Source: Vulcanimicrobiota bacterium
Lineage (GTDB): Bacteria > Vulcanimicrobiota > Vulcanimicrobiia > Vulcanimicrobiales > Vulcanimicrobiaceae
DNA: 51,550 nt
Assembly (NCBI GenBank): GCA_027306785.1
Contig: DAHUZB010000032.1
Span: 1 to 51,550 of the forward strand
Direction: 5' to 3'
Part shown: positions 14,733 through 23,636 of the stretch, piece after piece
Numbering within the stretch: the stretch's first letter is position 1
Layout: each line of letters opens with the position of its first letter
The notes under the pieces: generated by a model
The model's database searches: none
The model's input: the letters and a program-made list of their open reading frames with translations, nothing else
What the model was told of the DNA's origin: nothing
Position numbers and translations under genes: made by a program

Positions 14733-14895
14733 GATGCGTGGGTACCCTCAATGCCGCTTCGCCGGAGTCCTGCTGTGCCAGAAAAACGCCAAAATGCGAC
14801 TTTGTCGGCAGGTTAACATTCCGTAAAGCGACAACAGAGCCGGGGTTGCGGGTCTAGTGCTAAAGACCCATTCTCGGAAGGATACGGCTCGTTTG

Positions 14896-15306
14896 ATGTT
14901 CGTGGAGGAATCATCAGCCGTTCACGCGGGGCGTGACAACGGTCTCCCACCCAAGGGCACCCCGAAGAATTACCTGATGGCATGGCTCCTGGTCATGCTC
15001 AAAGACCATAACCTGCACGGCTACGAGATCATGAAAGAACTCAAAGAGAAGTTCGACGTGGTCAGCGATCCGGGCACCGTCTACCGCGCCCTGCGCCAAC
15101 TCGAACGCGAGGGGTACATTTCATCGTGGTGGGACCCGAAAGACCAGGGCCCCGCTCGTCGGATCTACACCGTCACCGAGTCCGGCTGCGCCGCGCTGCG
15201 GCTCTGGAGCGTCGCGCTCGAGCAATATCGGAGCAACCTCGACCAGTTCTTCAGCTTGTACGCGAGCAAGCATGAAGTCCCGCAGGAGCGACGTAATCTA
15301 GCCTAG
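14896..15306 (+). CDS. PadR-family repressor, PHB-responsive (PhaQ-like) type
   Basis: A 136-aa winged-helix regulator. GTPKNYLMAWLLVMLKD, HGYEIM, DPGTVYRALRQLEREG and GPARRIYTVTESG follow the poly-beta-hydroxybutyrate-responsive PadR repressor pattern; a C-terminal helix (LWSVALEQYRSNLDQF) would dimerise. It probably binds its own promoter or a polyester-storage gene, but none is encoded nearby. The ATG at 14896 is preceded by GGAAGGA; a GTG at 14857 would extend it by 13 residues. It heads an operon with the metallo-hydrolase, which starts 2 bp after its stop. Confidence 0.88.
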   Translation: MFVEESSAVHAGRDNGLPPKGTPKNYLMAWLLVMLKDHNLHGYEIMKELKEKFDVVSDPGTVYRALRQLEREGYISSWWDPKDQGPARRIYTVTESGCAALRLWSVALEQYRSNLDQFFSLYASKHEVPQERRNLA

Positions 15307-15308
15307 CT

Positions 15309-16106
15309 TTGTCCGCATCGGTACTCTTTCTCGGCAGCGGCGGCGCGCGATTCGTCGTCGCGCGCCAGATTCGCGCATCCGGCGGGATGTGGCTGCGTCT
15401 CGGTCAGACGCAGATTCACGTGGACCCCGGCCCGGGTGCCCTCGTTCGCGCGCTCGGACACGTTCCGCCGTGTAACCCGCGCGAACTCGACGCGATCGTG
15501 CTCTCGCACAAACATCTCGATCACGCGGGCGACGCCACCGCGATGATCGAGGCGATGACCTCCGGCGGCTTTCGCAAGCGAGGCGTCTTGCTCGCGCCGC
15601 CCGATGCGCTGAGCGGCGAGGCGACGGTGCTGCCCTACGTGCAAGGCTTTCCCGAACGCGTCGAAGCGCTCGCGCCTCGCTCCGGACCGTACCGCATCGG
15701 CGACGTGGAGATGTACACCTCGATCCGCCACGTGCATGCGGTGGAGACGTACGGCATGCATTTTCGGCACGAGGGGCTGCGCGTCTCGTACCTGCCCTGC
15801 GGTCGCTACTTCGACGAGCTCGCCGACGACTACGCCGCGCACGAACCCGACGCGTTGATCGTCAACGTACTGCGCTTCCGCGACAATATGGACGTCGATC
15901 ACCTCACCTGGGACGACGCATGCCGCATCGTCGAACGCGTGCGTCCGCGCGTCGCGATTTTTCAGCACTTCGGCACGAAGATGCTCGAAGCCGATCCGCC
16001 CGCGCTCGCGCAGGAGCTCGAAGACCGACTCGGTCTGCGCGCGATCGCCGCCCACGATTTTCGCACCATCGATCTGGAGACTGAAATTGCCGCAGCCGGC
16101 CGTTGA
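15309..16106 (+). CDS. MBL-fold metallo-hydrolase
   Basis: A 265-aa metallo-beta-lactamase-fold hydrolase. The zinc motif is LSHKHLDHAGD (HxHxDH, about residues 65-74), with further histidines in SIRHVHAVETYGMHF and a C-terminal FQHFGTKM. The start is TTG 15309, two bases after the PadR stop, with AGGAGCGACG upstream. Such proteins hydrolyse phosphoesters, lactones or nucleic acids; the substrate is unknown. The 3' end overlaps the GNAT start by 20 bp, indicating a three-gene operon. Confidence 0.85.
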   Translation: MSASVLFLGSGGARFVVARQIRASGGMWLRLGQTQIHVDPGPGALVRALGHVPPCNPRELDAIVLSHKHLDHAGDATAMIEAMTSGGFRKRGVLLAPPDALSGEATVLPYVQGFPERVEALAPRSGPYRIGDVEMYTSIRHVHAVETYGMHFRHEGLRVSYLPCGRYFDELADDYAAHEPDALIVNVLRFRDNMDVDHLTWDDACRIVERVRPRVAIFQHFGTKMLEADPPALAQELEDRLGLRAIAAHDFRTIDLETEIAAAGR

Positions 16107-16521
16107 GATTCTGCGCGTGCAAACCTCGGAGCTCGCGGAGTTCTACCGCGAGCACGAGCGCGAGGCGTTGCGCGCGTACTACGAGTTTCCGGTGATCCGG
16201 CACGAAGCCGACTACGGCTTCGCGGTGCGTGAGGGCGAGTCGACGATCGCGGCGGGAACGCTGCGTGTCGCGGCCTCGCTCGGCGCGATCGAAGCGCTCG
16301 TCGTGGATCCCGCGCATCGACGCCGCGGCATCGGCCGCGCGATCGTGGAGCGGATGGCCGACGTGGCGAACTACTACAATTGCCACAAAATGACGGTGAT
16401 GGTGCCGCATCTGCTCGGCGCGCAGCGCTTCTTCGAGGCGTGCGGCTACGGCGTGGAGGCGGTGCTTCCGCAGCACACCTTTAAGCTCGACATGGCGATG
16501 ATGCGCATCTACCTGCTCTAA
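16087..16521 (+). CDS. GNAT N-acetyltransferase
   Basis: A 144-aa single-domain GNAT. The acetyl-CoA pyrophosphate loop is PAHRRRGIGRAIV (R/Q-x-x-G-x-G/A type, about residues 77-89). The C-terminal CGYGVEAV matches the usual late motif. The start is TTG 16087 inside the end of the metallo-hydrolase gene. The acceptor amine is unknown. The stop overlaps the convergent secreted-protein gene by 4 bp. Confidence 0.85.
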   Translation: MPQPAVEILRVQTSELAEFYREHEREALRAYYEFPVIRHEADYGFAVREGESTIAAGTLRVAASLGAIEALVVDPAHRRRGIGRAIVERMADVANYYNCHKMTVMVPHLLGAQRFFEACGYGVEAVLPQHTFKLDMAMMRIYLL

Positions 16522-17549
16522 CGCGGTTTGCGCGGACGCCCGTGCGGGCGGCCGATCGGGCGACCGCCGCCGAACCGCTTCATGGCGGGCACGCGTCGGA
16601 ATTTGAAGCGCTGTAGCAACTGCGGATGCGCGCGGAGCGCGCCGCGATAAAAGATCACCGCGCCGCGTTTGCTCGTGGCGGTCACGACCGGCCCGCCGCG
16701 CTCGAACGCCGCTTGCGCGTCGTTCGCCCCGCGCGTGACCTGCGCGCCGCGCGCGTCGAAGATGCGCCCCGCGTCGCTGTGCGCGTTGATCTGCGCGCCG
16801 CCGTTCACGCCGAGCGCGATGTTGCCGCGCTCGGATTCGAAGCGCGCGAGTCCCGGCGCGAAGGTGCCGTTATCGTAGACGATCGAGCCGAGCAGGCTCG
16901 TCGCCTGGATTTGCGCCGCGTTGCAGTGCTCGAAGTACATCGCCCCGCGCCCCGTGCGCACGCGGATGCGCGCGAAGTCGCTATTCCGGGCGACGAACGG
17001 GCCGTTGTTCAATTGCACCGCACCGGTGCCGCCGACCCCGCTCAGCGTAATCCGCCCGCCGCCCATCAGCGCCGCGAACGTGCCGTTGCGATAGCCGCTG
17101 AGCGCGATCGCGCCGCGCCGGACGACCGTCACGAGCAGCGCGGTGTTCGCGGGAATCATGATCGTCGCGTTGCCGTTGCCGCGCACGAGCACGCCGTCGT
17201 GCGCAGCAGCGGCGAGATCGGGCAGCGGGAACGGCTCGGCGGGAAGCGTGAGCGTGGCGCCGTCCTTCGTGCGGACGCGCTGCGACCACAGCATGATCTG
17301 GTGCGGCAGCCGGCGCGCGACGAAACGCTGCGGTAACGCCCGCGCCTCGACGGTCGGCGCCCCGTCGACGCGAACCACGTCACGTTGCCAGGTGCGCACG
17401 GTCACGTTGCCTTGCGTCATGCGCACGTAGACGACGGGCGCGCTCGCGGGGAACTCGAGCGGTGCCGCCGTGGCCGCGCCGCCGAAGAGCGCTCCCAACG
17501 CGAATGCGAGCGGGAGCCATCCGAGCGCCCGCCGTCGCAACGTCGCCAT
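16518..17549 (-). CDS. Secreted beta-repeat protein, DUF4097/putative-adhesin-like
   Basis: A 343-aa exported protein. Signal peptide: RRRALGWLPLAFALGALFGG, cleaved after ATAA. The mature part is a run of short beta-strand repeats rich in G, N and V (NGNATIMIP, RRGAIALSG, GGRITLSGV, LGSIVYDNG), typical of parallel-beta DUF4097-like proteins. It ends in a basic Arg/Pro/Gly tail (GRPIGRPHGRPRKPR). It is the last gene of the sigma/two-component operon. An ATG at 17588 overlapping the kinase stop would add 13 residues and may be the coupled start; 17549 gives the cleaner signal peptide. Confidence 0.8.
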   Translation of the reverse strand: MATLRRRALGWLPLAFALGALFGGAATAAPLEFPASAPVVYVRMTQGNVTVRTWQRDVVRVDGAPTVEARALPQRFVARRLPHQIMLWSQRVRTKDGATLTLPAEPFPLPDLAAAAHDGVLVRGNGNATIMIPANTALLVTVVRRGAIALSGYRNGTFAALMGGGRITLSGVGGTGAVQLNNGPFVARNSDFARIRVRTGRGAMYFEHCNAAQIQATSLLGSIVYDNGTFAPGLARFESERGNIALGVNGGAQINAHSDAGRIFDARGAQVTRGANDAQAAFERGGPVVTATSKRGAVIFYRGALRAHPQLLQRFKFRRVPAMKRFGGGRPIGRPHGRPRKPR

Positions 17550-17584
17550 CACGCCACCATTGTACGTCCGCCGCGCGCAGGGGT

Positions 17585-19008
17585 TCATGAAGGCTCGGTG
17601 AGGCGCGGATCGATGCGCGGAAAGCTCGCGCGCAGACGAGCGCCGCCTTCGGGCGCACGTCCCGCCTCCACGCTGCCGCCGTGCACGCGGGCGATCGAGC
17701 GCACGATCGCAAGGCCGAGGCCCGTTCCCGCGACCGCGCGCGAATGGGCGCGATCGGCGCGATAAAAACGCTCGAACACGTGGGCGAGCTCCGCTTCGGG
17801 GATGCCGGGACCGGTGTCGTCGACCTCGATCCACGCGGTCGTCTCCGCCGCGCCGAGCGCGATGCGCACGTGTCCGGCGGGCGTGAATTTGATCGCGTTG
17901 TCGATCAGGTTGCCGATCAGCTGCCGCAGCAGGTGCGGATCGCCTTCGACGATCGTCGATTCGCTCGTCGGCTCGAAGACGAGCGAGAGGCCTTTCTCCG
18001 CGGCGCGCCCGGCGCACATCCGCAGCGCTTCCTGCGCCACGTGGGAGAGCGAGACGGGTTCTTTGGGGAGCGCGTCGCCGCGATCGGCTTTGGCGAGCGT
18101 GAGCATGCCGTTGACCATCTCGGCGAGCGCCGCGCTTTCGTGCTCGATCGTCTCCAGACTTTCGCGTCGAATCGTTTCGTCGCGATCGCCCCAGCGCAGC
18201 AGCAACTGGGCGTTCGCGTTGATCGAGGTGAGCGGGGTCTTCAATTCGTGCGATGCGTCGGAGATGAACTGCCGTTCGCGGGCGAACGCCTCTTCGAGCC
18301 GTGCGAGCAGATCGTTGAAGCTACGCATCAGCTCGCCGATTTCGTCGGATCGCGGCGGGCCTTCGAGCCGGCGGTCGAGGCGGTCGGAGCCGATCTCACG
18401 CATGGCCCGCGAGAGTCGCGTGATCGGGGCGATCGTGCGCGCGGCGATCGCGATCGCGAGCACGATGACCGCCGCGATCGCGGCGGCGAGGATGATCGCG
18501 ATCGTCTCGCGCGTCTGCGCGAGCGTGCGTTCGAGCACGTCCAATCGCTCCGCCACGTGAATCACCGCCCCCGAACTGCGTCCCCGCAGCAGGCGATCCT
18601 CGATGAGAAAGGTGCGCCCGTCGGCGCGCACGATGCGATATGCGGTCGGATGCGCGGGGGTGAGCGCGGGGTTCGGGGGAATGCGCACGCCGCCCAGATT
18701 CGATGAGCGCGCGATCGGATAGCCCGCGAGATCGTCGACCTGTAGATAGGTCGTGGCCGATGCCCACGTTTCGAGGTTCGTGCTGTTGAAGAACGGCAGG
18801 ATCGCGTCGCTCGAGAACGGTTCGGTCGCGAACGGATCGGCCGAGAGCGCCGCCTGCACGATCTCGTGCATCGTGGTATCGACCCGCGCGCGCGCCTCGG
18901 CATAGAGGATCGCTTGAAAGCGCGTGACGATCGCCGCGCTCGTCGCGGCGAGCACGAGGATCAGGAGCAGCGCATAGGCGCCGGCGATGCGCCACTTGAG
19001 CGAGAGCT

Positions 19009-19012
<4 letters not shown>
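17585..19012 (-). CDS. Sensor histidine kinase (OmpR/EnvZ-class)
   Basis: A 475-aa membrane kinase: first TM in residues 9-29, a periplasmic sensor region of about 140 residues, a second TM near 170-190 (ending IAIAARTI), a HAMP segment, HisKA with SHELKTPL (phospho-acceptor His255), and HATPase_c with N-box NLIDNAIKF, G1 DDTGPGIP and G2 GTGLGLAI. It phosphorylates the response regulator encoded just upstream, with which it overlaps by 4 bp (ATGA). The sensor-domain ligand is unknown. Location downstream of an ECF sigma factor suggests an envelope signal. Confidence 0.95.
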
Positions 19013-19689
<677 letters not shown>

Positions 19690-19698
19690 GCCGACGAA

Positions 19699-20070
19699 TT
19701 AGCGACGCGGCGTGAACGTGCCCTTCGCCGGAGATTGGAACCCGGTGAAAATCGAGAGCCACAGAGCGGTCGCGCCGCCCGCGGCGATCCACGCGAGGGT
19801 GGTGAGGTTGCCGAAGGCCTCGTTGAGCAGCCCGCCGATCTTCTCGACGCTCTCCACGAAGAGGTTGCTGCCGCCCATCACGATCACGGCGCCGAGCCAG
19901 AGCGCGATCGCGACGATCGTGCCGAGCAGGACGATCTCCCAGGGATTGAAGAGGGGGGCGGGGCGGAAGGCGGTCGCGGTGAGGATCGCGGCACGCAGAT
20001 CGGCCGGCGGCTCCTCGAGCGGCAGCGCGAAGAGAGCTCGGTCGAGGGCATCGTCGCTGTCGTAATTCAT
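19699..20070 (-). CDS. Probable anti-sigma factor (two-TM membrane protein)
   Basis: A 123-aa protein with an acidic N-terminal region (DDALDRALFALPLEEPPADL) and two hydrophobic helices, VLLGTIVAIALWLGAVIVM and LAWIAAGGATALWLSIF. Its ATG overlaps the sigma-factor stop (ATGA). It lacks the zinc HxxxCxxC motif of ZAS anti-sigmas, so identification rests on position, the short cytosolic N-domain and the membrane anchors. It would sequester the sigma factor at the membrane until a signal arrives. Confidence in the role is moderate. Confidence 0.65.
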   Translation of the reverse strand: MNYDSDDALDRALFALPLEEPPADLRAAILTATAFRPAPLFNPWEIVLLGTIVAIALWLGAVIVMGGSNLFVESVEKIGGLLNEAFGNLTTLAWIAAGGATALWLSIFTGFQSPAKGTFTPRR

Positions 20071-20654
20071 TCCGTTACCTCCTCCGCGTTCAAGAGCTTG
20101 CGCAGCTGCTCTTTCGCTCGGAATAGATGTGTTTTCACCGTACCCATCGGCAGACCCAGCACCTCGGCGATTTCTTCGTACTGTTTGCCTTGCAGGTGGT
20201 AGAGGGTGATGACCGTCCGGTACTTCTCGGGCAGCGCGTCGATGGCGGCGCGCAGCCGACGAGCTTCGTCGAGCGCGATCGCTTCGCGCTCGGGGCCGGG
20301 CCCGGGATCCGCCCGTTCCGGAAGCTCCTCATTACTATAACGCTTGCGGCGGTTCAAACGGTCGCAGCAGGCGTGATACACGATGGAAAAAATCCAGGTC
20401 GAGAATTTCGCCCCGGTCTTGAAGGTGCGCAGCGACCGATAGGCCTTGAAAAAGGCTTCCTGCGTCGCATCCTTCGCTTCCTCGACGTCGTGCAGGGTGC
20501 GGAAGGCGAGATGGTAGACCGCGCGGTCGTACCGTGCGACGAGCGTGGCAAAGGCCTCGGGGTTTCCACCGAGGGTCATCGCCACGAGCTGGCCGTCGTC
20601 CGGTTCGGAGTACACCGTCGCTACCCGCCGACGCTCCGCAAGCACTGCCGACAT
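20067..20654 (-). CDS. ECF-subfamily RNA polymerase sigma factor
   Basis: A 195-aa group IV sigma factor with a region 2 signature (VYHLAFRTLHDVEEAKDATQ), region 2.3-2.4 (FSTWIFSIVYHACCDRLNRR), and region 4 helix-turn-helix (YHLQGKQYEEIAEVLGLPMG then TVKTHLFRAKEQLRK). Length is normal. It directs RNA polymerase to alternative promoters; a GGAAC-N16-CGTC element at 20802-20826 in front of the divergent DUF4097 gene is the obvious target. The start codon overlaps the 12-bp palindrome ATGATGCATCAT (20653-20664), a possible operator. Confidence 0.95.
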   Translation of the reverse strand: MSAVLAERRRVATVYSEPDDGQLVAMTLGGNPEAFATLVARYDRAVYHLAFRTLHDVEEAKDATQEAFFKAYRSLRTFKTGAKFSTWIFSIVYHACCDRLNRRKRYSNEELPERADPGPGPEREAIALDEARRLRAAIDALPEKYRTVITLYHLQGKQYEEIAEVLGLPMGTVKTHLFRAKEQLRKLLNAEEVTE

Positions 20655-20887
20655 GATGCATCATCTACGGGGCCACGGTGCCCGATGTTTCGGGTGGTAC
20701 CGTGAAACAACACGTGGGCCGGGGCGTACGTGGGACAGATCGATTTTCGGAGGCCCGACCCTGTGATGCTTACCGCAAACAAATTAGACAAAACCCTTCC
20801 CGGAACGAGAACCACGCTTGGTCGTCTTGATTCCGGCACCCTGCGCCCCACCTTCGACGGTTGGGGTCCGCGGATCTAGTGCTTGCG
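20655..20887. promoter_or_regulatory. Divergent regulatory region between ECF sigma operon and DUF4097 operon
   Basis: A 233-bp gap without a gene. It contains the palindrome ATGATGCATCAT at 20653-20664 overlapping the sigma start, and the ECF promoter reported separately at 20802-20826. I see no GGAAC-type promoter facing the sigma gene and no convincing sigma-70 pair, so how the sigma operon itself is driven is not visible. Confidence 0.5.
20802..20826 (+). promoter_or_regulatory. ECF-type promoter GGAAC-N16-CGTC
   Basis: GGAAC at 20802-20806 and CGTC at 20823-20826 are separated by exactly 16 bp, the canonical ECF spacing. The -10 ends 61 bp upstream of the ATG at 20888. The divergently encoded ECF sigma factor is the natural candidate to use it, giving a closed sigma/target module. 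Confidence 0.65.
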
Positions 20888-21829
20888 ATGCGCCAACCTT
20901 CGAGAGTCGCGGTCGTCGCGATGCTGCTCGCCGTCGAAGTGCTGATCGTCGGCGCCGTCCTTGCGGTCCTGCACGGCGACGGTTGGCATAATGCCTTCGC
21001 GGGATCGATGCATCAATCGTCGTTCACCGCGCACCCGATCGCGCCGATCGCCGCCGGCCCCGCGCCGCACGTGCAGATCGACGACCCGGAGAGCGGTGTG
21101 GCCGTGACGGCGTCGAGTGACGGCATGATCCACGTGAAGGACGATACCACGTTCTCCGGCTGGCGCTTCGGCGGGACGCAGGCGATCCCGCAGGTGCAGG
21201 TGACGCGAACCTTCGACGGCGTGCATATTTCGCGCGCCGACTACTCGACCGGCGGCATCTCGATGTTCTCGCGCCAGCATATCGAGGTGCAGGTGCCGGC
21301 CGGGGCGCACGTCACGATCGGGCACTGCGAAAGTGCGGAGATCACCGGCGTGCGCAACGGCGTCGAGGTGGCCTCGCAGGACGGACATATCGCACTACGC
21401 CATATTAGCGGCATCGTGAACGCACGGAGTGACGACGGCCACATCAGCGCCGAAGACCTGAGCGGGAGTGCGATCTCGCTCGTGACCGACGACGGCCACA
21501 TCACCGCGCGCGGTATCCGTCTACTCGGTGCGGCGCCGCAGGCGAAGATCCATACGAGCGACGGCTCGCTCACCGTGAGCGGCCTCTTCCCGGCGGGCGG
21601 CAGCTACGCGCTCTCGACCGGCGACGGCAGCGTGCATCTCGCGCTCGCCGCGGGCAGCGATGCCCGGATCGCCGCCTCGACCGGCGACGGCAGCATCGAG
21701 GTCGACGGGTCGGAGACCGACGGCGACGACTCGGCGAGCCGCACGGTGCAGGTCGGCGGGGGCAACGCGAGCATGCAGGTGCGTACCGAAGACGGATCGA
21801 TCCATATTTCGACGAACGGAGCCCGGTAG
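20888..21829 (+). CDS. Membrane-anchored DUF4097 family protein
   Basis: A 313-aa protein with an N-terminal signal anchor (VAVVAMLLAVEVLIVGAVLA) and an outside beta-repeat domain. From about residue 160 there are seven copies of an (S/T)xDG-(H/S)-(I/L/V) unit (SQDGHI, SDDGHI, TDDGHI, TSDGSL, TGDGSV, TGDGSI, TEDGSI) at roughly 18-30-residue spacing, typical of a DUF4097 beta-helix. The role is unknown, but such genes are commonly controlled by ECF or two-component systems. ATG 20888 is preferred; a TTG at 20861 would add nine residues. Confidence 0.85.
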   Translation: MRQPSRVAVVAMLLAVEVLIVGAVLAVLHGDGWHNAFAGSMHQSSFTAHPIAPIAAGPAPHVQIDDPESGVAVTASSDGMIHVKDDTTFSGWRFGGTQAIPQVQVTRTFDGVHISRADYSTGGISMFSRQHIEVQVPAGAHVTIGHCESAEITGVRNGVEVASQDGHIALRHISGIVNARSDDGHISAEDLSGSAISLVTDDGHITARGIRLLGAAPQAKIHTSDGSLTVSGLFPAGGSYALSTGDGSVHLALAAGSDARIAASTGDGSIEVDGSETDGDDSASRTVQVGGGNASMQVRTEDGSIHISTNGAR

Positions 21830-21833
21830 AACC

Positions 21834-22430
21834 ATGGAACAGCTGGTACCACTTTTTGCGATCTTCTTTCTCTTCGGTGCGCCGGTCGCGGCCTGGATCA
21901 TCTCACGCGTCCTCGCGCACCAGGAGCGGATGGCGATGATCCGTCAGGGCTACATGCCCCCGCCGGATCTGCGCGCGATGCGCCGCGGCACGTGGCAGGG
22001 CCCGGTTCCGCCGCCGCCCGGCCCCGGGATGCAGATGCCGCCGCCGATGGGCGGCGCGTACGATCCCGCCTACTACGCCCAGATGGCGATGAACAAGGGT
22101 ATCCGGATCACCTTCGTCGGCTTCGCCCTGCTGATCGGGCTCTCGTTCATCGGTATGCACGGCGGCACGTTCTATCCCGGGCCGTGGCTGCTCGGCGGCT
22201 TGGTTCCGATGTTCGTGGGGATCGGGCAGATCATCAGTGCCGTGCTCGGCGGAGCACGTCTCCCCGGCATGATCGCGGGCAACCAGTCGCATCAGGGCGC
22301 GAACTTCGGCCCGCCGCCGGGGCCGTCGCCCGGGCCGACGCCGCCGCCGCCCTCGTCGGGACCGTATGCGTGGCGTCCGGGCTCGACGCCCGAGATCGAG
22401 AAGCCGGTCCAGCCGCCCGACCTGCGCTAA
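21834..22430 (+). CDS. Membrane protein with proline-rich segments
   Basis: A 198-aa protein: N-terminal TM helix (LVPLFAIFFLFGAPVAAWI), a short basic stretch, a Pro/Met-rich linker, two further helices (ITFVGFALLIGLSFIGMH and WLLGGLVPMFVGIGQII), then a Pro/Gly-rich tail with PPPGPSPGPTPPPP. The layout resembles small DUF6249-like membrane proteins encoded with sigma-factor modules, but I cannot assign the family. It starts 4 bp after the DUF4097 stop, so it is in the same ECF-controlled operon. Confidence 0.75.
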   Translation: MEQLVPLFAIFFLFGAPVAAWIISRVLAHQERMAMIRQGYMPPPDLRAMRRGTWQGPVPPPPGPGMQMPPPMGGAYDPAYYAQMAMNKGIRITFVGFALLIGLSFIGMHGGTFYPGPWLLGGLVPMFVGIGQIISAVLGGARLPGMIAGNQSHQGANFGPPPGPSPGPTPPPPSSGPYAWRPGSTPEIEKPVQPPDLR

Positions 22431-22461
22431 CCGCTCCCTCGCTCCGTTCGTTCGACAAAAA

Positions 22462-22495
22462 CAACACCGCCGGTTCGAAAGAACCGGCGGTGTTG
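22462..22495 (-). terminator. Strong intrinsic terminator
   Basis: A perfect 15-bp stem (CAACACCGCCGGTTC and its complement) with a 4-nt loop. Read on the minus strand it is followed by TTTTTG, so it terminates the small gene at 22556-22696. On the plus strand it lacks a T-run but could still help stop readthrough from the operon ending at 22430. Confidence 0.85.
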
Positions 22496-22555
22496 CTGCT
22501 GCTAGAGGTCTTTGGAGGTTACTCGTGTGCGAGGAGTCTTACGAGAAGGAGGTAC

Positions 22556-22696
22556 TTACTTGCAGGAGACGATCGCGATCGCCCAACCCGCCGAAGTTCT
22601 CGTACGTACGAGATACCCGTCCGCAGTACGGTCATACACCTGATACCCGGCGCGAAGTGCGTCGGCTAACGTTTTGAAGACCATGAGACCTGCCAT
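22556..22696 (-). CDS. 46-aa small protein of unknown function
   Basis: A 46-aa ORF whose ATG (22696) is preceded by the near-perfect Shine-Dalgarno AAAGGAGGG at 8-bp spacing, the strongest ribosome-binding site noticed in the window. It is followed by a strong minus-strand terminator at 22462-22495, so it is a complete monocistronic unit. The protein begins MAGLMVFKTLADALRAGYQV, is basic and aromatic, and has one Cys near the end; no TM helix is evident. TATAGA near 22734-22739 is a weak -10 candidate. No family is recognised. High-level expression is expected. Confidence 0.75.
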   Translation of the reverse strand: MAGLMVFKTLADALRAGYQVYDRTADGYLVRTRTSAGWAIAIVSCK

Positions 22697-22814
22697 CTGC
22701 GGACCCTCCTTTCTCGCGTTTGCGTCTCTAATCTCTATAACGGCTTTCGTCGCAGAAAGGTTCAGTGCTTCGGCCCGGACTTTTTTTAAAATTCGGCGAA
22801 ATGCCTGAGCCGTT

Positions 22815-23636
22815 ATGCCCACCGTCTCTCCATCCGCCGTCCACGATGTGACGGTGATCGATCGCCGCGAGCTCGCGCCCGGCATCGTGCTCATAGGATT
22901 ACACGCTCCGGCGCTCGCGCGTGTGACCCGTCCGGGGCACTTCGCGATGGTCATTCCGCCCAGCGGTGAGACCGCCGCGACGGCACTCGGCATCTACGAA
23001 GCGCACGACGAACGCGTGAGCCTGCTCTTCTTCGCGGTCGGAAAGCGCACGCACGAACTCGCTACCTTGAAGATCGGCGATCCGCTCGGCGTGATCGGCC
23101 CGCTTGGCAATGGCTTTACAATCGGCGACGCGCGTGACGTGGCGATCGTGGCGGGCGGCGTCGGCATCGCGTCGGTGCTGCTGCCCGCGCAACGCGCGCT
23201 CGCGGCGGGGGCGCGCGTGCGGCTCTACTACGGTGCGCGCACGCGCGATCTGCTGGTGGAGCGCGAGCGCTTTGCGGCCGAGGGCTGCGACGTGCTCGTC
23301 GCGACCGATGACGGCAGCGACGGATATCGCGGATACGTCACCGAGCTGCTCGCGCAAACGCACGAACCGCCCGAATTGATCCTCGCGTGCGGACCTTCGC
23401 CGATGCTGCGCGCGGTCGCGCGCACGGCGGGCGAGATGAACGTGCCCGCGCAGCTCTCGCTCGAAGAAACCTTTGCCTGCGGCGTCGGCGGATGTTGGGG
23501 CTGCGTCGTACCGCTCGTGCGCGACTCCGCGCAAGCGCCGAGCTTTCCGCCTGCCGAACGGCAAGGCAGCGACGTCGTCTACGCGCGCATCTGCAAAGAG
23601 GGCCCCGTCTTTTGGGCGCACGAGCTTCGGTGGTAG
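22815..23636 (+). CDS. pyrK: Dihydroorotate dehydrogenase electron-transfer subunit
   Basis: A 273-aa FAD/[2Fe-2S] protein of the ferredoxin-reductase type. It has an N-terminal FAD-binding barrel (PGHFAMVIPP), an NAD-binding domain with GGVGIASVLLPAQ and LACGPSPMLRAV, and a C-terminal cluster motif CGVGGCWGC plus a fourth Cys in ARICKEGP. It passes electrons from the PyrD flavin to NAD+. The 8-bp gap to pyrD and the following pyrF and pyrE make a pyrimidine operon. The start ATG 22815 lacks an obvious Shine-Dalgarno sequence. Confidence 0.93.
   Translation: MPTVSPSAVHDVTVIDRRELAPGIVLIGLHAPALARVTRPGHFAMVIPPSGETAATALGIYEAHDERVSLLFFAVGKRTHELATLKIGDPLGVIGPLGNGFTIGDARDVAIVAGGVGIASVLLPAQRALAAGARVRLYYGARTRDLLVERERFAAEGCDVLVATDDGSDGYRGYVTELLAQTHEPPELILACGPSPMLRAVARTAGEMNVPAQLSLEETFACGVGGCWGCVVPLVRDSAQAPSFPPAERQGSDVVYARICKEGPVFWAHELRW

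What the first reader, a model, noticed from the sequence alone, without database searches (positions are those of the whole stretch)
16518..22430. ECF sigma factor and two-component system in one operon, diverging from an ECF-promoter-driven DUF4097 gene
Sigma, putative anti-sigma, response regulator, kinase and a secreted beta-repeat protein are joined by overlaps or gaps under 10 bp across 4.1 kb. Opposite them a DUF4097 gene has GGAAC-N16-CGTC ahead of it. Two signal systems therefore share one transcript, and beta-repeat proteins lie at both ends. This suggests a closed envelope-sensing circuit in which the beta-repeat proteins are outputs or sensors.
Basis: partly seen in the sequence, partly recalled or inferred. 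Interest (0 to 1): 0.58.

Follow-up and report, generated by a model that had tools for sequence, protein, structure and literature searches.

The report
Envelope-stress operon with hidden micropeptide gene
In a soil-type bacterium, two stress-sensing systems share one operon that faces a set of membrane-protein genes; the pair is switched by a back-to-back promoter different from the one first proposed, and the facing operon starts with a tiny, overlooked peptide gene whose tail is kept in many relatives.

Summary
The genes are as described: ECF sigma, two-helix anti-sigma-like protein, OmpR-type regulator, kinase and a secreted beta-repeat protein face DUF4097 and DUF6249 genes (Candidatus Eremiobacterota). 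All five operon genes stand together in 39 of 40 family loci taken. The proposed promoter GGAAC-N16-CGTC is not one: no relative of 40 keeps it in place, it is common inside genes, and it lies inside a small ORF (20766-20879). The conserved promoters are a back-to-back pair further upstream: GAAAC-N16/17-CGTA towards DUF4097/DUF6249 (41 of 41 loci) and towards sigma (39 of 41). The same motif precedes a second DUF4097 gene, an RND pump and envelope-type protein families elsewhere in the genome. Both beta-repeat proteins have the toastrack fold. So a closed envelope-stress circuit is supported, through different DNA. Unexpected is a 37-aa micropeptide whose C-terminus F-x-G-W-G-[PV]-[KR]-[LIFV]-stop is under amino-acid selection. 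It recurs before YtrA-like GntR/ABC operons, beside ABATE-CGNR regulators and as stand-alone genes, in 86 of 149 phylum genomes. Its function is unknown; a trans-acting peptide fits best.

The parts
20666..20691 (-). Conserved ECF-type promoter of the sigma/anti-sigma/TCS operon, GAAAC-N17-CGTA; its CGTA ends 11 nt before the sigma ATG (8 nt in 28 of the 39 loci that have it)
20704..20728 (+). Conserved ECF-type promoter of the facing operon, GAAAC-N16-CGTA
   Evidence: 41 of 41 loci, shuffle mean 0.06 of 41
20067..20654 (-). ECF sigma factor, 195 aa, regions 2 and 4 only
   Evidence: PF04542, PF08281; TIGR02937
19699..20070 (-). Putative membrane anti-sigma factor, 123 aa, two hydrophobic segments, no cysteine, no Pfam or NCBIfam match
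   Evidence: present in 88 of 99 family genomes
19009..19689 (-). OmpR-type response regulator
   Evidence: PF00072, PF00486
17585..19012 (-). Membrane histidine kinase with HAMP
   Evidence: PF00672, PF00512, PF02518
16518..17549 (-). Secreted beta-repeat protein with toastrack-like fold, 343 aa
   Evidence: hhalign to the DUF4097 alignment 98.9%; model pLDDT 89.9; Z 14.3 to 3lyc_A, 13.3 to 4opw_A, 11.4 to 4qrk
20766..20879 (+). Small ORF, 37 aa, MLTANKLDKTLPGTRTTLGRLDSGTLRPTFDGWGPRI, preceded by GGAGG; the micropeptide
   Evidence: second genomic copy before a YtrA-like gene
20802..20826 (+).
20879..21829 (+). DUF4097 (toastrack) protein with N-terminal membrane helix; GTG start overlaps the micropeptide stop (TAGTG); an internal ATG lies at 20888
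21834..22430 (+). DUF6249 membrane protein with proline-rich tail; the constant member of the facing operon
22463..22494 (.). Perfect 14-bp inverted repeat with GAAA loop after DUF6249, possible end of the facing operon; no T tract
   Evidence: read from the sequence

Best explanation
This is an autoregulated envelope-stress module of Candidatus Eremiobacterota. A membrane anti-sigma factor holds an ECF sigma factor. On envelope stress the sigma is released and fires two back-to-back GAAAC-N16/17-CGTA promoters. One transcribes sigma, anti-sigma, regulator, kinase and a secreted toastrack protein, so the two-component system is made on the sigma's own transcript and its level follows sigma activity. 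The other transcribes the micropeptide, the toastrack DUF4097 protein (when present) and the DUF6249 membrane protein. Further genomic copies of the promoter drive a second DUF4097 lipoprotein, an RND pump and small families of envelope-type proteins. Shown by sequence: the gene set, its conservation, the promoter pair, the regulon motif, the toastrack fold and the coding nature of the small ORF. Inferred: that this sigma reads this promoter, that the 123-aa protein is its anti-sigma, and that the stimulus is envelope stress. The micropeptide is most likely a trans-acting product, because it also exists as stand-alone genes; its target is unknown.
For: All five operon genes in 39 of 40 family loci (the 40 were taken from 88 genomes with the anti-sigma). 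Promoter pair in 41/41 and 39/41 loci, shuffle mean 0.06 of 41. Promoter kept before 10 of 11 well-scoring homologues of one target family, across several genera. Target genes include DUF4097, ACR_tran, DUF4282 and BNR/sortilin-type. Toastrack fold on both sides. Micropeptide: third codon positions free while amino acids of the last eight codons are fixed (the search pattern fixed some first and second positions). Copies with GWGV ends were found before GntR genes by gene order, not by pattern. Pattern hits with control: 0 control hits for the P form, 1 for the V form. Stand-alone copies: L267, L270, L272, L354-L356.
Against: No expression or binding data. The motif resembles promoters of other ECF factors, so another sigma of this genome might read it. 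33 of 56 genome hits lie inside genes. The promoter before the second DUF4097 gene is kept in only 6 of 30 homologous loci, though many of those are probably paralogues. For the micropeptide, most examined copies do sit directly ahead of a gene, as a cis-acting leader would.
Confidence: 0.75

Rival explanations
1. The micropeptide is a cis-acting leader: translation of its conserved tail stalls or slows termination, and this gates the overlapping or nearby downstream start (DUF4097/DUF6249, GntR).
For: Conserved C-terminus with variable N-terminus; in the ECF class the stop overlaps or abuts the next start (TAATG, TAGTG) in most loci, and in the GntR class the next start is mostly 3-20 nt away. 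The ending P-[RK]-[LI] resembles the ending of apidaecin, which arrests ribosomes at stop codons; its last eight residues are the conserved ones (passages of PMC11347161).
Against: Stand-alone copies without a downstream same-strand gene nearby (L267, L270, L272; L354-L356). Downstream genes differ. Class-specific N-terminal conservation (TLPGG, LRPTF). P is replaced by V in 28 copies. Only 5-bp consensus stems in the leader RNA, inconclusive.
Confidence: 0.3
2. The micropeptide is the precursor of a modified peptide (RiPP) made by a YcaO or another unlinked enzyme.
For: In G055 a copy precedes a 105-aa protein and a YcaO gene.
Against: YcaO is in 46 of 149 genomes and does not follow the peptide: none of the 14 genomes of family f3 is among the 46, yet 13 of the 14 have the peptide. 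The conserved tail with variable front is the reverse of usual leader/core conservation (recalled).
Confidence: 0.08
3. The reader's promoter GGAAC-N16-CGTC at 20802 drives DUF4097.
For: It is present at a suitable distance from the start codon.
Against: Not conserved, inside a conserved coding sequence, not enriched.
Confidence: 0.03
4. The two-component system only shares the transcript by gene order and has no regulatory link to the sigma factor.
For: L087 among 40 loci lacks regulator, kinase and beta-repeat protein while keeping sigma and anti-sigma, so the sigma pair can exist without them.
Against: 39 of 40 loci keep the linkage with short gaps.
Confidence: 0.3

Closest known systems
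Toastrack/Psp-Lia partner operons (mSystems 2024, PMC11237479; passages read)
   Same: DUF4097 toastrack proteins next to two-component systems, a sigma factor, or GntR-ABC operons in membrane-stress contexts; PDB 4QRK and 4OPW are named there as toastrack examples and match here
   Different: Here sigma, anti-sigma and two-component system share one operon that faces a DUF4097/DUF6249 operon. No PspA, PspC or LiaF was seen among the proteins scanned. The toastrack domains lie behind an N-terminal membrane helix or signal-like segment, so they look extracytoplasmic, whereas the paper predicts an intracellular domain.
Autoregulated ECF sigma/anti-sigma pairs such as Bacillus SigW (promoter form recalled)
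   Same: Sigma and membrane anti-sigma in tandem, sigma promoter of the form TGAAAC-N16-CGTA, envelope regulon
   Different: Anti-sigma without zinc motif or family match; operon continues into a two-component system; sigma mRNA probably leaderless; SigW equivalog cut-off not reached
Bacillus ytrGABCDEF operon (PMC12772383; passages read)
   Same: A small first gene ahead of a YtrA GntR repressor and an ABC transporter; induced by lipid II cycle inhibitors there
   Different: YtrG is a small transmembrane protein; the peptide here has no evident membrane segment and has the FxGWG[PV][KR] ending
Type II proline-rich peptides such as apidaecin (PMC11347161; passages read)
   Same: Conserved last eight residues, free C-terminal P-[RK]-[L/I]
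   Different: Chromosomal bacterial gene, about 31-60 aa, FxGWG motif, P may be V; no activity tested

Membership tests
ECF sigma factor | Sigma-70 regions 2 and 4 only, over the curated cut-offs | tested here: met
   PF04542 60.1 bits, PF08281 70.7 bits, TIGR02937 121.9 bits
SigW | NCBIfam SigW equivalog cut-off | tested here: not met
   116.6 bits against 243.1 for TIGR02948, 133.8 against 209 for NF007223
Zinc-binding anti-sigma (ZAS) | zf-HC2 / HxxxCxxC motif (recalled) | tested here: not met
   No Pfam or NCBIfam match; the sequence has no cysteine
Anti-sigma factor by function | Binds and inhibits the cognate sigma | not testable with these tools
   Only position, overlap with sigma and two hydrophobic segments
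Toastrack DUF4097 (gene 20879-21829) | PF13349 over gathering score | tested here: met
   31.9 bits against 22.9
Toastrack (gene 16518-17549) | PF13349 over gathering score | tested here: not met
   No Pfam family
Toastrack (gene 16518-17549) | Toastrack fold | tested here: met
   hhalign 98.9% to the DUF4097 alignment; Z 11.4 to 4qrk and 13.3 to 4opw_A; Foldseek best match 4qrk E 1.9e-05
DUF6249 | PF19762 over gathering score | tested here: met
   39.9 bits against 33
Psp/Lia system | PspA, PspC or LiaF with toastrack | tested here: inconclusive
   None among the ten proteins scanned around the locus; the genome was not searched for them
Termination-arrest leader peptide | Always directly upstream of the regulated gene | tested here: not met
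   Stand-alone copies in L267, L270, L272, L354, L355, L356
Termination-arrest leader peptide | Ribosome pauses at its end | not testable with these tools
   Needs toeprinting or ribosome profiling
Apidaecin-like type II PrAMP | Traps release factor on the terminating ribosome | not testable with these tools
   Only the similar ending P-R-L/I
YcaO-modified RiPP precursor | Maturase co-occurs with precursor | tested here: not met

The most novel reading that the evidence does not exclude
Two families of Eremiobacterota use one family of micropeptides (about 31-60 aa) with the shared free C-terminus F-x-G-W-G-[PV]-[KR]-[LIFV]. Several unrelated stress regulators (this ECF sigma factor, YtrA-like GntR repressors, ABATE-CGNR regulators, another sigma factor) deploy them, and all act in trans on one common target. 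That target could be the terminating ribosome, which would make them chromosomal analogues of apidaecin that slow translation under envelope stress.
Probability: 0.25. Interest if true: 0.85.

Novelty: new variant of a known kind. Interest (0 to 1): 0.55.

Why it matters
It defines, from sequence, an autoregulated ECF circuit, its promoter and a first regulon for a largely uncultured phylum. It shows a sigma/anti-sigma pair and a two-component system welded into one operon throughout a family. It also corrects a plausible but wrong promoter call that fell inside an overlooked coding sequence. The micropeptide family is the part that could open something new: a short, strictly kept C-terminal signature reused by several stress regulators, with no match in the libraries searched and a simple test (synthesise it, look for its target).

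Tried and rejected
YcaO/RiPP reading: rejected as general. RNA structure in the micropeptide leader: column-shuffle scores were low, but the consensus had only 5-bp stems, so it is taken as inconclusive. Rfam and tRNA scans of the window: nothing. Sigma-70-type promoter scan of 16000-22900: none found; terminator-like sites 2 against 4.5 in shuffles. PDB sequence search with the beta-repeat alignment: only weak matches up to E 1. Micropeptide in Pfam, NCBIfam, PHROGs and PDB sequences: nothing. Literature: six tail strings in full text, no paper; DUF6249/DUF4097/ECF sigma, one paper with two of the terms (listing only); Eremiobacterota with sigma factor, three papers (listing only); small protein, leaderless, microprotein and Eremiobacterota, at least two terms (561 papers hold them, only the 8 listed were seen, listing only). 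So 'not in print' is claimed only for these searches.

Limits: the 40 loci were chosen from 88 genomes, the best 20 or so and then others spread over genera. Genome-wide classes used a simple codon-score gene finder of my own, which misplaces some starts (for example DUF4097 and sigma in the window). The micropeptide pattern was derived from the ECF copies, so first and second codon positions in the tail are partly fixed by the search; the third positions, the GWGV copies found by gene order and the controls are independent of that. In one search, 63 rows (some loci fetched twice) gave 13 copies beside the ECF genes, 44 before a YtrA-like gene and 6 with neither. In one search, 8 of 14 YtrA-like loci were readable by the motif used: 5 had the peptide (L324 already known from the pattern), 3 showed none (L322, L323, L329), although L329's genome has a GWGV hit. 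In one search, 6 of 30 homologues of the second DUF4097 gene kept the promoter. In one search, 14 loci were read: 11 homologues scored well and 10 of these had the promoter; 2 gave no hit and L320 matched only weakly at its end, without promoter.
Full report
What is there. The window holds, on the minus strand, an ECF sigma factor, a 123-aa protein with two hydrophobic segments, an OmpR-type regulator, a HAMP histidine kinase and a secreted beta-repeat protein. On the plus strand it holds a DUF4097 and a DUF6249 gene. The genome is a 3.1-Mb assembly of 35 contigs. Titled relatives of the anti-sigma-like protein are mostly Candidatus Eremiobacterota genomes (11 of 12; one title says only 'bacterium').

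Conservation. The anti-sigma-like protein is found in 88 of 99 genomes of the family. With a wider profile it is in 90 of 149 phylum genomes: 88 of 99 of this family, 2 of 4 of the sister family, none elsewhere. In 40 loci taken from those genomes, sigma, anti-sigma, regulator, kinase and beta-repeat protein stand together in 39; L087 lacks the last three. DUF6249 faces them in 40 of 40; DUF4097 is missing by phmmer in 9. Gaps are short: medians -4, 9, 10 and 32 bp.

The promoter. GGAAC-N16-CGTC at 20802-20826 exists, but none of 40 relatives has it in that place, it is not enriched, and it falls in coding sequence. An alignment of the gap between the two operons showed two other conserved blocks. 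They are GAAAC-N16-CGTA on the plus strand (41 of 41 loci; 3 with a 17-nt spacer) and GAAAC-N17-CGTA on the minus strand (39 of 41; 8 with a 16-nt spacer). Shuffled sequences gave 0.06 loci of 41 on average. In 28 of the 39 loci only 8 nt separate CGTA from the sigma start codon, 11 in the window, so the sigma messenger probably has no leader.

The regulon. In the own genome GAAAC-N16/17-CGTA occurs 56 times against 29 for the reversed control: 18 hits lie ahead of predicted genes, 5 in other gaps, 33 inside genes. Genes behind the motif include a second DUF4097 lipoprotein, an RND pump, a DUF4282 membrane protein, a BNR/sortilin-type protein, an AraC regulator and two sets of related envelope-type proteins. 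One set, L117/L122, keeps the motif within 60 nt upstream in 10 of 11 well-scoring homologues from several genera. The second DUF4097 gene keeps it in 6 of 30.

The beta-repeat proteins. The DUF4097 gene meets PF13349. The secreted protein has no Pfam family, but its alignment matches the DUF4097 alignment at 98.9% probability. Its model (pLDDT 89.9) aligns with toastrack-type structures at Z 11 to 14; 4QRK and 4OPW are the toastrack examples named in PMC11237479 (passages). Both have an N-terminal helix or signal-like segment, so they are probably outside the cytoplasm.

The micropeptide. Between the plus-strand promoter and DUF4097 lies a 37-codon ORF after GGAGG. In 26 of 41 loci an ORF of this kind was flagged: 24 end in F-x-G-W-G-P-[RKS]-[LI], L082 is extended by four residues and L069 is only partly similar. 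In the last eight codons third positions vary freely (glycine -4 uses all four codons) while the residues are fixed apart from the variable x and the allowed swaps at the last two. A pattern for this ending is found in 76 of 149 phylum genomes (63 of 99, 13 of 14 of family f3, none of the other 36) with no control hit. The form with V for P is in 25 genomes with one control hit. The union is 86 of 149.

Where else it lies. In the own genome the second copy is the first ORF of a YtrA-like GntR/ABC operon. Of 63 rows read, 44 precede such a GntR gene and 13 lie beside the ECF genes. Other copies lie 6 nt before another sigma gene (L268), before a diguanylate cyclase with the GAAAC motif starting 186 nt before the ORF end (L178), ahead of a YcaO pair (L180), divergent from ABATE-CGNR regulators (L355-L358, L361; the Pfam check covered three such neighbours, in L267/L358, L270/L357 and L361), or alone (L267, L270, L272, L354-L356). 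Stand-alone copies favour a product that acts in trans. Tight coupling in the ECF class, and the resemblance of the ending to apidaecin (passages of PMC11347161), keep the cis or ribosome reading alive.

How it most likely works. Envelope stress releases the sigma from its membrane partner (inferred). The sigma fires both promoters and the scattered regulon (promoters shown, recognition inferred). The same transcript refills the two-component system and its secreted toastrack partner, which may sense or transmit the state of the envelope (inferred). Outputs are toastrack, DUF6249 and other envelope proteins, and the micropeptide. I rate the circuit as a new variant of known envelope-stress modules, and the micropeptide as the open question.

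Noticed in passing
L163 5444-7889 (own genome C16): Second micropeptide copy as first ORF of a YtrA-like GntR - ABC ATPase - permease operon, behind a TTGAC-type promoter with palindromic GTACTAGT repeats that look like an operator.
   Followed up: yes
L355-L358, L361 (family f3): GWGV-type micropeptide genes divergent from ABATE-CGNR-type regulators; in L357/L358 a second, GWGP-type copy lies about 1.3 kb away, beyond a metallophosphatase gene.
   Followed up: partly
L180 4947-6740 (G055): Micropeptide-like ORF (GTG start), then a 105-aa unknown protein and a YcaO cyclodehydratase: a possible peptide-modification cluster.
   Followed up: partly
L117, L122, L131, L238, L251, L258 (own genome): Two sets of related envelope-type proteins behind GAAAC-N16/17-CGTA, several only 8-9 nt from the start codon, so probably leaderless; two have weak LolA-like matches below the cut-off.
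   Followed up: partly
window 14857-16521: PadR-type (PhaQ-like) regulator, metallo-hydrolase and GNAT genes flank the operon end and keep that place in many relatives.
   Followed up: no
own genome C26:74872-77982 and C33:240965-241918: Three YcaO genes in the own genome, two of them in tandem.
   Followed up: no
window 22463-22494: Perfect 14-bp inverted repeat with a GAAA loop but no T tract after DUF6249.
   Followed up: no
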